DNA from: Achromobacter insolitus
Lineage (GTDB): Bacteria > Pseudomonadota > Gammaproteobacteria > Burkholderiales > Burkholderiaceae_B
Reading direction: 5' to 3'
Assembly (NCBI RefSeq): GCF_002209555.1
Contig: NZ_NJIF01000004.1
Coordinates: 310,001 to 374,000 of the forward strand
Length of the DNA stretch: 64,000 nt
Shown in pieces: positions 107 to 45,495 of this stretch. Both the position numbers and the translations under genes were made by a program. The notes beneath the pieces are model-generated. The model saw only the letters and a list, made by a program, of their open reading frames with translations. It was not told the origin of the DNA and did not search any database. Positions within the stretch are counted from its first letter, which is position 1; each line of letters opens with the position of its first letter.

Positions 107-183
107 TGGCGCGCCCGGCAGGATTCGAACCTACGACCCCCTGGTTCGTAGCCAGGTACTCTATCCAGCTGAGCTACGGGCGC
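107..183 (-). tRNA. tRNA-Arg(ACG), copy 1
   Basis: A 77-nt tRNA on the minus strand with an encoded 3' CCA (complement at 107-109). The acceptor stem is GCGCCCG/CGGGCGC. The anticodon stem CCTGG/CCAGG encloses loop CTACGAA, giving anticodon ACG, which reads CGN arginine codons after inosine modification. The T-arm GGTTCGAATCC is canonical. The gene is base-for-base identical to the copies at 3671-3747 and 3871-3947. Flanking sequence, including the terminator, is also similar to that of copy 2, so the pair arose by duplication. Confidence 0.98.
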
Positions 184-3670: not shown

Positions 3671-3747
3671 TGGCGCGCCCGGCAGGATTCGAACCTACGA
3701 CCCCCTGGTTCGTAGCCAGGTACTCTATCCAGCTGAGCTACGGGCGC
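3671..3747 (-). tRNA. tRNA-Arg(ACG), copy 2
   Basis: Identical over all 77 nt, including CCA, to the copies at 107-183 and 3871-3947. Its 5' flank (GCTCCG...AAAGAGGC) and 3' flank (terminator) resemble those of copy 1, marking a duplication of about 190 bp. It lies 123 bp downstream of copy 3 on the same strand and is probably co-transcribed with it. Confidence 0.98.
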
Positions 3748-3870: not shown

Positions 3871-3947
3871 TGGCGCGCCCGGCAGGATTCGAACCTACGA
3901 CCCCCTGGTTCGTAGCCAGGTACTCTATCCAGCTGAGCTACGGGCGC
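3871..3947 (-). tRNA. tRNA-Arg(ACG), copy 3
   Basis: Third identical 77-nt copy with encoded CCA, anticodon ACG. No hairpin terminator lies between it and copy 2, so the two probably form one transcript ending at 3608-3638. Confidence 0.98.
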
Positions 3948-8062: not shown

Positions 8063-8155
8063 TGGCGGAGATGGTGGGATTCGAACCCACGATGCAGTTT
8101 TTAGCCACATACTCCCTTAGCAGGGGAGCCCCTTCAGCCTCTCGGGCACATCTCC
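8063..8155 (-). tRNA. tRNA-Ser(GCT)
   Basis: A 93-nt class II tRNA on the minus strand with encoded CCA. The acceptor stem is GGAGATG/CATCTCC. The anticodon stem CTCCC/GGGAG encloses CTGCTAA, giving anticodon GCT for AGC/AGU codons. A long variable arm and T-loop GGTTCGAATCC are present. It lies between lysC and mnmH. Confidence 0.97.
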
Positions 8156-9508: not shown

Positions 9509-9662
9509 CTCGTACTCTGGCTGGGAACCCGCCGCAAAAGGTTGACGGGCAAAGCCGTATATTCTAGCGCGACGGTAAAAAATTGCGCAGCTTGTGCAAA
9601 ATTCTGTCCGCGCAGCGGTATTTCGGGGACGCCAGGCCGCCAGACGCCCCGCTTGCTCCCGT

Positions 9663-43215: not shown

Positions 43216-43770
43216 ATGAGCACCTACAAGATTGCCGTTTTCGTCGGAAGCCTGCGCGCTGCCTCGTTCAACCTGCGGCTGGCCCGCGCGCTGGAAAAGC
43301 TGGTGCCCGCGGACTTCAAGTTCGAGTACGTGAGCCTGGGCGATGTGCCGCTCTACAACCAGGACAACGAGAACAACCTGCCCGCGCCCGCCGCCAAGCT
43401 CAAGCAGCAGATCGCCGACGCCCAGGGCATCCTGTTTGTTTCGCCCGAGCACAATCGCTCCTTGCCCGCTGCCCTCAAGAACGCCATCGACTGGGGTTCG
43501 CGCCCCTGGGGCCAGAACTCCTGGACCGGCAAGGCCGCCGGCATCGTCGGCACCTCGCCCAGCGCCGCCGGCACCGCGCTGATGCAGCAGCACTTGCGCA
43601 ATATCCTGGCAGCTGAAGGAGCCAACGTCCTGACCACGCCTGAGGTCTTCCTGCAGTACACGGAAGGCCTGATCGATGACCAGTACACCATCACCAACGA
43701 AGGCACCCGCAAGTTCCTGCAAGGCTGGGTGGACCGCTACGTGGACTGGATCAAGAAGTTCAACGCCTGA
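43216..43770 (+). CDS. NADPH-dependent FMN reductase family protein
   Basis: A 184-residue flavodoxin-like reductase of the ChrR/YieF/azoreductase type. The phosphate-binding GSLRAASFNLRLARAL (about 12-27) and SPEHNRSLPAALKNAIDWGSRP (about 76-97) are characteristic. It reduces quinones, chromate or azo dyes at the expense of NAD(P)H, limiting one-electron cycling. GGAG precedes ATG 43216. Two hairpins, one a strong terminator, follow. Confidence 0.93.
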   Translation: MSTYKIAVFVGSLRAASFNLRLARALEKLVPADFKFEYVSLGDVPLYNQDNENNLPAPAAKLKQQIADAQGILFVSPEHNRSLPAALKNAIDWGSRPWGQNSWTGKAAGIVGTSPSAAGTALMQQHLRNILAAEGANVLTTPEVFLQYTEGLIDDQYTITNEGTRKFLQGWVDRYVDWIKKFNA

Positions 43771-43994: not shown

Positions 43995-44090
43995 TTATCC
44001 CCGCCAACTGTGGAGAAGGTTGAGGACAGCCTTTGGGCAGAGTCAAAATCTCCTGTCCCGCCAAGCACTTGCAAGGGGCGGTCAAAAAAT
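43995..44090 (+). repeat. 96-bp repeat, copy 1
   Basis: Opens TTATCCCC, has TGTGGAGAA at offset 14, TGAGGACAGC at offset 26 and CCAAGCACTTGCAAGG near the end. It aligns without gaps to copies at 44186, 44311 and 44474; by hand count about 74 percent identical to copy 3. Confidence 0.85.
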
Positions 44091-44094
44091 GCGC

Positions 44095-44117
44095 AATCAT
44101 CCTTTTGGATGATTTTT
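44095..44117 (+). terminator. Terminator-like hairpin in repeat spacer
   Basis: AATCATCC-TTTT-GGATGATT followed by TTTG. Placed 5 bp after repeat copy 1, as a terminator of a small transcript covering that repeat would be. Confidence 0.5.
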
Positions 44118-44185
44118 GTCGCACTTATCCACTGAAATCGGGATGAACCCGCGACCTCGCGCCGCAATCTTGCGGCCATGTGCAT

Positions 44186-44281
44186 TTGTCCCCGCGTTCT
44201 GTGGAAAAGCATGAGGACAGTATGAGGGCAGCTTGGAAATTCCCTTGCATATCAAGTGCCTGCAGGGGGTGGTCAAGAATG
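44186..44281 (+). repeat. 96-bp repeat, copy 2
   Basis: Opens TTGTCCCC, then TGTGGAAAA at offset 14 and TGAGGACAG at offset 26. The 3' part (AAGTGCCTGCAGGGGGTGG) is more diverged but in register with the others and ends GGTCAAGAA. Confidence 0.82.
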
Positions 44282-44310
44282 GCTCAAACACCGTATCGAG
44301 ACGTGGCGGG

Positions 44311-44406
44311 TTGTCCCCGGCAAATGTGGATAAGCCTGAGGACAGCCTGCGGGTAGCGTTCAAAAACCCTTACGGGCCAAGCACTTGGAAGGCCCGCTCA
44401 AGAAAC
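44311..44406 (+). repeat. 96-bp repeat, copy 3
   Basis: The copy closest to consensus. TTGTCCCC, then TGTGGATAA (perfect DnaA box on the minus strand) at offset 14, TGAGGACAGC at offset 26, CCAAGCACTTGGAAGG and CTCAAGAAA at the end. Confidence 0.87.
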
Positions 44407-44473
44407 GCTCACTATCCGCGGACCCACGGTGTCATGCCGAGCAGAAACTGCAAAGGGCAAAAGCGCGGCCAGC

Positions 44474-44569
44474 TTGTCCCCACCGAATGTGGACAAGCCT
44501 CTGAACAGTCGCATAACAAGCTGGAAAAACCCTTATCCGACAGTCACTTGGATGGCGTGCTCAAGAAAG
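44474..44569 (+). repeat. 96-bp repeat, copy 4
   Basis: TTGTCCCC, then TGTGGACAA at offset 14. The GAGGACAG element is decayed (CTGAACAG). CAGTCACTTGGATGG and CTCAAGAAA remain in register. It ends 15 bp before the dodecin stop codon. Confidence 0.82.
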
Positions 44570-44584
44570 AAGCAGCAAGAGAGC

Positions 44585-44800
44585 TCATTCGTTGCCTTCC
44601 AGCCGCATGCCAATCTTCAAACCGACCTGCCAGTACGCCACCTTGCCGTCCTTGATATGGCCGCGCACTTCGGTGACTTCGAACCAATCCAGGTTGCGCA
44701 GCGTTTCGGAAGCGCGGGCGATGGCCTGGGAGATGGCGTCATCGGTGGATTTGGTGGAAGAGCCCACCAATTCGATTTGCTTGTAGACATGATTCGACAT
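44585..44800 (-). CDS. Dodecin family protein
   Basis: A 71-residue flavin-binding storage protein forming hollow dodecamers. It has MSNHVYKQIELVGSSTKS, then ISQAIARASETLRNLDWFEV and the beta strands GKVAYWQVGLKIGMRLE. The tryptophan in LDWFEV stacks with flavin in homologues. GGAGACGAG precedes ATG 44800. It is divergent from the DUF6496 gene; stress co-regulation is possible but not shown. Confidence 0.95.
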   Translation of the reverse strand: MSNHVYKQIELVGSSTKSTDDAISQAIARASETLRNLDWFEVTEVRGHIKDGKVAYWQVGLKIGMRLEGNE

Positions 44801-44988: not shown

Positions 44989-45495
44989 ATGCCTGAACGA
45001 AAAACCCTGGAACGAGCGGCGCGCGATAAACGCCAAGGAAAGTCCGCGTCCACGCAAGCCGGAGAGTTCGTGCGCGAGGAAATCGAACACGTGCGCGAAG
45101 GCAAGCACGGCGTGCGCTCCACCAAGCAGGCGATCGCGATCGGACTGTCCAAGGCGCGGCGGGCAGGCGTCGACCTGCCCACCCCCAAGAAGGCCAGCGC
45201 AGCCACGAAGCGCAAGGCCAAGCAGGACAGCAAGGCGGCTGAGGACGGGCATGCCAAGTCGACCAAACGCGCCAAGGCCACCACCACCGCCCTGAAGAAA
45301 GAAAGCACCAAGCCCGCATCGCGCACTGCGCTGTCGCGCCAGGCCAGCGCATCCGCGTCCAAACGCACCGCGGCCGCGCGCTCCGCCGCCGCCAAGAAGG
45401 CTGCCGCCACCAAAGGCGCGGCGGGGCGTTCCGCAGCGGCGAAGAAAGCCGCTCGCACGCGCGCGGCGAATCAGCGCGCCGCCCACGCACATTGA
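44989..45495 (+). CDS. DUF6496 protein with histone-H1-like Lys/Ala tail
   Basis: A 168-residue, very basic protein. Residues about 20-65 (EFVREEIEHVREGKHGVRSTKQAIAIGLSKARRAG) match DUF6496, a short stress-associated domain. From about 66 on the chain is almost wholly Lys, Ala, Ser, Thr and Arg with AAKKAA-type repeats, as in bacterial H1-like nucleoid proteins (Bordetella BpH1, AlgP). It may bind DNA or RNA through this tail. AAGGAGG precedes ATG 44989. Tail length is likely to vary between strains. Confidence 0.85.
   Translation: MPERKTLERAARDKRQGKSASTQAGEFVREEIEHVREGKHGVRSTKQAIAIGLSKARRAGVDLPTPKKASAATKRKAKQDSKAAEDGHAKSTKRAKATTTALKKESTKPASRTALSRQASASASKRTAAARSAAAKKAAATKGAAGRSAAAKKAARTRAANQRAAHAH

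What the first reader, a model, noticed from the sequence alone, without database searches (positions are those of the whole stretch)
43995..44569. Four gap-free 96-bp repeats, each centred on a DnaA-box-like 9-mer
Copies at 43995, 44186, 44311 and 44474 align over 96 bp without gaps. Each has TTRTCCCC at the start, TGTGGANAA at offset 14, in three of them TGAGGACAG at offset 26, and (C)ACTTG..AGG..G..TCAA at the end. TTGTCC and GGACAG can pair to close a hairpin with the TGTGGANAA in its loop. Five 9-mers in about 490 bp fit a relaxed DnaA box, one perfectly (44325). No dnaA, dnaN, gyrB or rpmH is near, so this is not the normal oriC. Options: a DnaA-titrating or regulatory locus, a replication relic of an integrated element, or a family of small RNAs (hairpin plus U-run after copy 1). 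Between-unit spacing varies while unit length does not, so the unit itself is under constraint.
Basis: partly seen in the sequence, partly recalled or inferred. Interest (0 to 1): 0.85.

Follow-up and report, generated by a model that had tools for sequence, protein, structure and literature searches.

The report
Tandem DnaA-recharging DNA sites in Achromobacter
Four repeats in what is very probably an Achromobacter chromosome look like compact, tandem versions of the E. coli DARS sites that recharge the replication-starting protein DnaA with ATP, a multi-copy form of that control system.

Summary
The repeats are real: four gapless ~101-bp units, found as one array in 36 of 37 genus genomes and without conserved RNA fold. 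Each unit has the geometry of E. coli DARS cores: DnaA box I forward at 0, box II reversed at +14, box III reversed at +26. MG1655 DARS1 and DARS2, read here, have the same offsets. Downstream lie an IHF-like and a Fis-consensus site, in DARS2 order.

The own genome holds seven units (array, a single 111 kb away, a pair elsewhere). Thirteen genus genomes hold 7-8; in the 11 placed, loci lie 0.26-0.39 of the chromosome from dnaA. Some other Burkholderiales genomes carry one or two elements with better DnaA boxes. A model from 17 such loci finds the four window units (E 3e-12 to 1e-6) and ranks DARS1 first among E. coli loci. Hda, Fis, IHF-alpha and DnaA genes are present.

Best reading: a tandem array of compact DARS2-like elements that regenerate ATP-DnaA; architecture shown, function inferred. 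DARS2-like sequences in beta-proteobacteria are mentioned in one review passage, so the novelty is the compact, tandem, multi-copy form, for which I found no description.

The parts
43995..44095 (+). Unit 1: box I 43995-44003, box II 44009-44017 (TGTGGAGAA), box III 44021-44029, IHF-like 44059-44071 (6 of 9), Fis-like 44080-44094 (6 of 6 consensus positions)
44186..44286 (+). Unit 2: box I 44186-44194, box II 44200-44208 (TGTGGAAAA), box III 44212-44220, IHF-like 44250-44262 (8 of 9), Fis-like 44271-44285 (5 of 6)
44311..44411 (+). Unit 3: box I 44311-44319, box II 44325-44333 (TGTGGATAA, perfect DnaA box), box III 44337-44345, IHF-like 44375-44387 (6 of 9), Fis-like 44396-44410 (5 of 6)
44474..44574 (+). 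Unit 4: box I 44474-44482, box II 44488-44496 (TGTGGACAA), diverged box III 44500-44508 (TCTGAACAG), IHF-like 44538-44550 (5 of 9), Fis-like 44559-44573 (5 of 6)
44125..44133 (+). Extra DnaA-box-like 9-mer TTATCCACT between units 1 and 2; TTATNC in 30 of 30 aligned genus loci
44095..44114 (.). Short hairpin after unit 1, partly conserved in 30 genus loci; role unknown
43216..43770 (+). Flanking gene, NADPH-dependent FMN reductase family
44585..44800 (-). Flanking gene, dodecin

Best explanation
The locus is a tandem array of four compact DARS2-like elements (DnaA-reactivating sequences). In each unit two DnaA molecules would sit head-to-head on boxes I and II, with a third on box III. IHF bends the DNA just downstream and Fis binds next to it, so ADP leaves DnaA and ATP-DnaA is regenerated for the next initiation at oriC, reversing Hda-driven inactivation. 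Shown here: box geometry, the order core-IHF-like-Fis-like, conservation, copy number, conserved chromosomal distance, presence of Hda, Fis, IHF-alpha and DnaA genes, and sequence-model similarity to elements with better DnaA boxes in other Burkholderiales. Inferred from E. coli work: DnaA, IHF and Fis binding, head-to-head DnaA contact, ADP release.
For: Same 0/+14/+26 offsets and orientations as MG1655 DARS1 (TTATCCACT, TGTGGATAA, TGTGTATTA) and DARS2 (TTATTCACC, TGTGGATAG, TGTGAAGAA). Papers state that box I is opposite to II and III, with the same spacing in DARS1 and DARS2 (PMC5742627, passages), and that I/II act head-to-head (PMC8682772, passages). In 65 out-of-genus units the six Fis consensus positions are kept in 44-62 of 65 (G88 61, Y91 62, A92 60, T98 44, R99 59, C102 59); A93, A96 and A103 are also conserved, and conservation ends at column 103. 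Best of all placements on both strands: Fis at column 88 (mean 5.57 of 6; 45 of 47 units with 5 or 6), IHF at column 67 (6.85 of 9; highest mean in 200 mononucleotide shuffles 3.19). In 14 of 17 loci of other Burkholderiales families the aligned element has boxes of 7, 8 and 7 of 9 or better at 0/+14/+26, and only 14 of 103,202 positions in those loci meet this rule (loci chosen by model R2). R3, built from these 17 loci, finds the four window units at E 2.8e-12 to 1.4e-6, next hit 0.13, and DARS1 first in 16.7 kb of E. coli loci, E 1.1e-6. Own-genome pattern with spacer 4-9 allowed: 6 of 6 hits have spacer 6, reversed-pattern control 0. Hda over cut-off, Fis homologue, IHF-alpha over cut-off, DnaA 53% identical to E. 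coli's, with GGRDHTTVLHA identical. In 11 genomes all placed loci lie 0.26-0.39 of the genome from dnaA, even where loci are on swapped arms.
Against: No binding or activity data. Window boxes I and III match TTWTNCACA at only 6-7 and 6 of 9, and the IHF match is 5-8 of 9. In the seven own units an overlapping reverse IHF placement scores slightly better (6.71 against 6.43). The E. coli DARS2 core is only a weak hit (R1 rank 4, E 0.25; R2 rank 7, E 0.19; R3 rank 8, E 0.01). R3 also scores datA (E 1.7e-4), an oriC edge (0.0017) and the dnaA upstream region (0.0065), so part of the score is DnaA boxes in general. Core-to-IHF and core-to-Fis distances (64 and 85 from box I) are shorter than in DARS2 (about 93 and 145), where spacing matters. 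79 of 200 family genomes gave no R1 match and 131 of 200 order genomes no R2 match, with strict filters. E. coli is described with two DARS, not seven.
Confidence: 0.72

Rival explanations
1. The array is a datA-like or pure titration locus: it soaks up DnaA, or promotes hydrolysis of ATP-DnaA with IHF, rather than recharging it.
For: Dense DnaA boxes plus an IHF-like site; R3 matches a datA stretch (E 1.7e-4) and R2 a datA stretch over columns 14-54 (E 0.14). datA, DARS1 and DARS2 together account for much of E. coli's DnaA titration (PMC12371093, passages).
Against: The conserved box I/II opposition at +14 with III at +26 is the DARS core geometry. The datA hits lack box I. The Fis site is a DARS2 part, and DARS lie mid-arm as here.
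Confidence: 0.15
2. The unit is bound by an unknown protein; the DnaA, IHF and Fis look-alikes are coincidental.
For: Box II carries any base at its third DnaA position (reverse reading), which the E. coli R-box TTWTNCACA does not; boxes I and III are far from consensus in the window.
Against: Related elements in other Burkholderiales families have TTATCCACA / TGTGGATAA / TGTGGAAAG-like boxes in the same register, and R3 built from them finds the window units.
Confidence: 0.06
3. A family of four small RNAs.
For: A hairpin with a U-run lies after unit 1.
Against: Consensus fold -0.67 kcal/mol, 4 pairs, none compensatory; no Rfam match at gathering score over the array; no sigma-70-like promoter found.
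Confidence: 0.03
4. A secondary replication origin or the replication relic of an integrated element.
For: DnaA boxes with IHF and Fis sites are also oriC parts.
Against: 1.9-2.4 Mb from dnaA in 11 of 11 genomes placed. 19 of the 33 TTATCCACA sites of the own genome lie on contig C21 within 16-97 kb, around dnaA. Flanking genes shared with other genera.
Confidence: 0.03

Closest known systems
E. coli DARS2
   Same: Three DnaA boxes at 0 (forward), +14 and +26 (reversed), then IHF and Fis sites in that order; intergenic; mid-arm; conserved distance from the origin
   Different: Here ~101 bp instead of 455 bp, shorter spacing to IHF and Fis, one IHF-like and one Fis-like site per unit, four units in tandem and 7-8 per genome, degenerate boxes I and III
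E. coli DARS1
   Same: Identical box offsets and orientation; best E. coli hit of models R2 and R3
   Different: Single, and not described with IHF or Fis sites in the passages seen. Separate three-box cores resembling it were also seen in two Achromobacter genomes
E. coli datA
   Same: DnaA boxes plus an IHF site
   Different: No box I/II/III core in register found by the models; IHF site between boxes 2 and 3
E. coli oriC
   Same: DnaA boxes, IHF and Fis sites
   Different: The window locus is about 2 Mb from dnaA; I did not look for an unwinding element
Streptomyces and Bacillus DnaA box clusters (recalled; the Streptomyces paper seen only as a reference-list entry)
   Same: DnaA-box clusters away from oriC that affect initiation
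   Different: Not compared in sequence here

Membership tests
DARS | Core of three DnaA boxes, I opposite to II and III, with spacing as in DARS1 and DARS2 (0/+14/+26) | tested here: met
DARS | Core boxes are DnaA boxes (near TTWTNCACA) | tested here: inconclusive
   Window: box II 8-9, box I 6-7, box III 6 of 9; 14 of 17 related non-family elements reach 7/8/7
DARS | Promotes ADP release from DnaA | not testable with these tools
   needs biochemistry
DARS2 | IHF-binding site downstream of the core | tested here: inconclusive
   Consensus best at column 67, mean 6.85 of 9 in 47 units; 5-8 of 9 in the seven own units
DARS2 | Fis-binding site GNNYANNNNNTRNNC beyond the IHF site | tested here: met
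   45 of 47 other-genus units and 7 of 7 own units with 5-6 of 6 positions; sequence match only
DARS2 | Spacing between core, IHF and Fis sites as in E. coli DARS2 | tested here: not met
   64 and 85 from box I here, about 93 and 145 in MG1655; so filed as DARS2-like, not as DARS2
DARS2 | Conserved mid-arm chromosomal position | tested here: met
   0.26-0.39 of genome from dnaA in 11 of 11 genomes computed
datA | IHF site between DnaA boxes 2 and 3 | tested here: not met
   The IHF-like site follows all core boxes
Small RNA | Conserved secondary structure | tested here: not met

The most novel reading that the evidence does not exclude
Alcaligenaceae run ATP-DnaA regeneration through a multi-copy system: an old array of four (up to nine units per genome) compact DARS2-like modules, in Achromobacter each kept at its own box II variant by position (mostly TGTGGAGAA, TGTGGAAAA, TGTGGATAA, TGTGGACAA), giving graded DnaA affinities and so a stepwise or cooperative recharging switch, with further units usually on the other arm at a similar distance from the origin.
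Probability: 0.3. Interest if true: 0.88.

Novelty: new variant of a known kind. Interest (0 to 1): 0.74.

Why it matters
DARS sites are the known DNA elements that turn ADP-DnaA back into ATP-DnaA. How far they reach is stated unevenly: a primary paper says that Fis and the DARS2 core are conserved specifically among gamma-proteobacteria related to E. coli (PMC4245941, passage), one review says E. coli-proximal beta- or gamma-proteobacteria (PMC5742627, passage), another says many proteobacterial species (PMC10380432, passage). The elements here document the core, with IHF-like and Fis-like sites, across Burkholderiales genera, in a compact form and, in one family, in tandem arrays and up to nine copies. 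They offer natural modules of about 101 bp with fixed spacing in which the role of each box and of IHF and Fis can be tested, and pose a testable question: why keep four non-identical copies side by side?

Tried and rejected
Small RNA: rejected on fold, Rfam and promoter scans. Normal oriC or terminus: rejected on distance from dnaA, DnaA-box density around dnaA and sampled GC skew of one genome, which is noisy (9 of 11 stretches up to 3.1 Mb positive, 6 of 9 from 3.4 Mb on negative; array at 4.13 Mb). Stop-free-span check of 84 units (45 inside a span of 450 nt or more): uninformative in GC-rich DNA. An OR-type paper search was useless, and one returned unrelated papers because the term datA matches 'data'. 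Fujimitsu 2009 was not held, so what it says on conservation was not seen. The count of DnaA pairs by offset (14 at +14, 8 at +26, at most 3 at any other) is biased, because several loci were chosen for that offset. R1 was built from 15 of the 30 fetched array loci. R2 came from 60 of the 84 aligned units, weak or near-duplicate ones left out by hand. R3 uses all 19 rows of A5, two of them partial reverse hits and two (L146, L147) identical over the aligned element. G031 and the fragmented own genome were left out of the position computation (11 of 13 used), and mostly one representative unit per array was entered.

Full report
OBSERVATION. The four copies are at the stated places and align without gaps. 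The best ungapped 96-mer pair scores 71 matches against at most 48 in 200 mononucleotide shuffles. The own genome (28 contigs, 6.44 Mb) has the array once. A sequence-only model R1, built from 60 units of 15 genus loci, finds seven units in it: the four here, one at C23:242467 and a pair at C11:186155 and 189907. All seven have E of 1.4e-11 or less and the next hit is 0.55; 150 of 2266 first-look candidates were scored.

CONSERVATION. The array is found once in each of 36 of 37 genus genomes; the miss, G028, is 78% complete. By plain DNA comparison it is in 0 of 24 genomes of other families. A pattern for unit 3 hits 29 named stretches, 27 Achromobacter and 2 Bordetella, and the window's array region is closest to A. 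aegrifaciens (88% over 1597 nt) and A. xylosoxidans (87%), with Bordetella at 80-81% over about 550 nt. So I take the genus as Achromobacter, family Alcaligenaceae, order Burkholderiales (NCBI lineage; the tool's own family and order labels f1 etc. are unnamed). In an alignment of 30 loci the blocks of the units are conserved while spacers are less so. Copies are orthologous by position: identity within a position is 0.80-0.84 across genomes, and between positions in one genome 0.58-0.66. Box II is TGTGGAGAA in 28 of 30 for copy 1, TGTGGAAAA in 20 of 29 for copy 2 (one 99-nt row dropped), TGTGGATAA in 30 of 30 for copy 3 and TGTGGACAA in 30 of 30 for copy 4. So the copies have been kept apart, not homogenised. 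Dodecin flanks the array in 30 of 30 loci and the FMN reductase is found in 24 of 30 (loci are short). Among 21 loci of other genera (L086-L104, L109, L125) the FMN reductase is near in 14 and dodecin in 11; the three single-unit loci of the own genome tested in the same call have neither.

WHAT THE UNIT IS. RNAalifold on 60 units gives -0.67 kcal/mol and no compensatory change. R1 over 200 family genomes hits 121 (34 of 43 genera), up to nine units each. Sixty-five out-of-genus units share TTATCCCC, 6 nt, TGTGGANAA, then a third reversed box-like motif at +26, an A-tract, CAA-N4-TTG and G-N2-YA-N5-TG-N2-C in one register. The consensus sequences for DnaA (TTWTNCACA), IHF (WATCAANNNNTTR) and Fis (GNNYANNNNNTRNNC) were read in PMC4585315 (passages). 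The six Fis positions are kept in 44-62 of 65 units; other columns there (A93, A96, A103) are conserved too. Fis: the best placement is column 88 in both groups. IHF: the best is column 67 forward in other genera; in the seven own units the overlapping reverse placement at column 70 is slightly better (6.71 against 6.43 of 9).

LINK TO DARS. The intergenic regions at 0.81 and 2.97 Mb, where a review places DARS1 and DARS2 (PMC5742627, passages), were read from MG1655. Boxes of 8 of 9 or better stand at 0, +14 and +26 in both: L106:1608/1622/1634 and L105:1136/1150/1162. IHF-like sites follow at L105:1229 and 1245 and a Fis consensus at 1281. That these are the published core boxes is my reading from location and spacing; the figures were not seen. 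The window units have the same offsets and orientations. R1 and R2 place DARS1 second and first among hits in small E. coli sets, and DARS2 fourth and seventh; on the E. coli dnaA and oriC loci the best R2 hit is E 0.059. R2 (105 columns) over 200 order genomes hits 69 (46 of 108 genera) at E 0.001 or less. Outside the own family these are one or two per genome and weak (best E 1.1e-7), and such E-values are rough. In 17 fetched non-family loci (12 families) 16 have a box II of 9 of 9 and 14 reach 7/8/7 at 0/+14/+26, for example TTACCCACA / TGTGGATAA / TGTGGGTAG in L141; L155 does not fit the register. R3, built from these loci alone, recovers the four window units, next hit E 0.13, in 64 kb. 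As a false-positive check, R2 on 400 kb of G013 gave only the four array units and two weaker hits (E 5e-4 and 0.003), both DnaA box pairs in register.

MACHINERY AND PLACE. Hda, a Fis homologue 39% identical to E. coli Fis, IHF-alpha and a DnaA 53% identical to E. coli DnaA are encoded. IHF-beta and DiaA were not sought. R2 finds 7-8 units in each of 13 genus genomes: this array, one or two singles about 100-150 kb away, and a pair 3.7-5 kb apart. In 11 genomes the placed loci lie 0.26-0.39 of the genome from dnaA. Relative to the common layout, loci are mirrored to the other arm in G016 (all), G021 (array and singles) and G005 (pair), yet the distance stays similar. Genome lengths were rounded to 0.1 Mb for 9 of the 11, so fractions are good to about 1%.

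MECHANISM. Inferred from E. coli: DnaA on boxes I and II meets head-to-head, ADP leaves, apo-DnaA reloads ATP; IHF and Fis on the adjacent sites activate this (PMC8682772, PMC5742627, PMC4245941, passages). Box I and III degeneracy may make ADP-DnaA assembly depend on IHF and Fis; that is speculation.

NOVELTY. The reach of DARS is stated unevenly in print: gamma-proteobacteria related to E. coli (PMC4245941), E. coli-proximal beta- or gamma-proteobacteria (PMC5742627, citing the former), many proteobacterial species (PMC10380432). So a DARS2-like element in a beta-proteobacterium is not new as such. I found no description of tandem, compact or multi-copy DARS, or of these repeats, in searches for DARS with Burkholderia, Pseudomonas, Betaproteobacteria or proteobacteria, and for DnaA boxes with Achromobacter or Bordetella. 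Of the eight papers I saw passages of five and listings of three; PMC13220808 (passages) and PMC10218098 (passages) speak of DARS in E. coli only, apart from noting its absence in Bacillus subtilis in the former. Subscription papers were not searched.

LIMITS. No function was measured. Part of the model scores reflects DnaA boxes as such: R3 also scores datA, oriC and dnaA-upstream boxes. The spacing from core to IHF and Fis differs from DARS2, where spacing was shown to matter (PMC4245941, passage).

Noticed in passing
G029:C1 about 3.8746 Mb (L174:954, minus strand) and G013:C1 about 3.7247 Mb (L057:4734-4773, minus strand): Three-box cores at 0/+14/+26 with full or near-full DnaA boxes (TTATCCACA, TGTGGATAA, TGTGCAAAA or TGTGTAGAA), resembling DARS1: possibly a second DARS type in Achromobacter.
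   Followed up: partly
G000:C21:16-97 kb: 19 of the 33 perfect TTATCCACA sites of the genome lie in this 81-kb stretch around dnaA (C21:54768), like the origin-proximal box density reported for E. coli (PMC12371093 passages).
   Followed up: partly
G000:C22:298557-298579 (L172): Perfect opposed pair TTATCCACA-N5-TGTGGATAA at +14, with a further TGTGGATAC at +32 instead of +26; similar pair in G029 at 3.0032 Mb.
   Followed up: partly
G000:C4:39054-39076, minus strand (L039): TTATCCCC-N6-TGTGGAAAA pair with the same spacer, in the intergenic region between a thioredoxin-like and a ParE/GyrB-like gene (gene names by eye), without the rest of the unit.
   Followed up: no
window 44095-44133: Hairpin plus an extra DnaA-box-like 9-mer between units 1 and 2, partly kept in 30 genus loci without clear compensatory changes.
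   Followed up: partly
window 9577-9626, minus strand: Weak partial R2 hit (columns 50-99, E 0.044), covering the IHF-like and most of the Fis-like part only.
   Followed up: no
window 44989-45495: Lysine/alanine-rich protein with a DUF6496 match beside the array.
   Followed up: no
window 107-183, 3671-3747, 3871-3947: Three tRNA-Arg(acg) genes on the minus strand, two adjacent and one 3.5 kb away, with a tRNA-Ser(gct) at 8063-8155.
   Followed up: no
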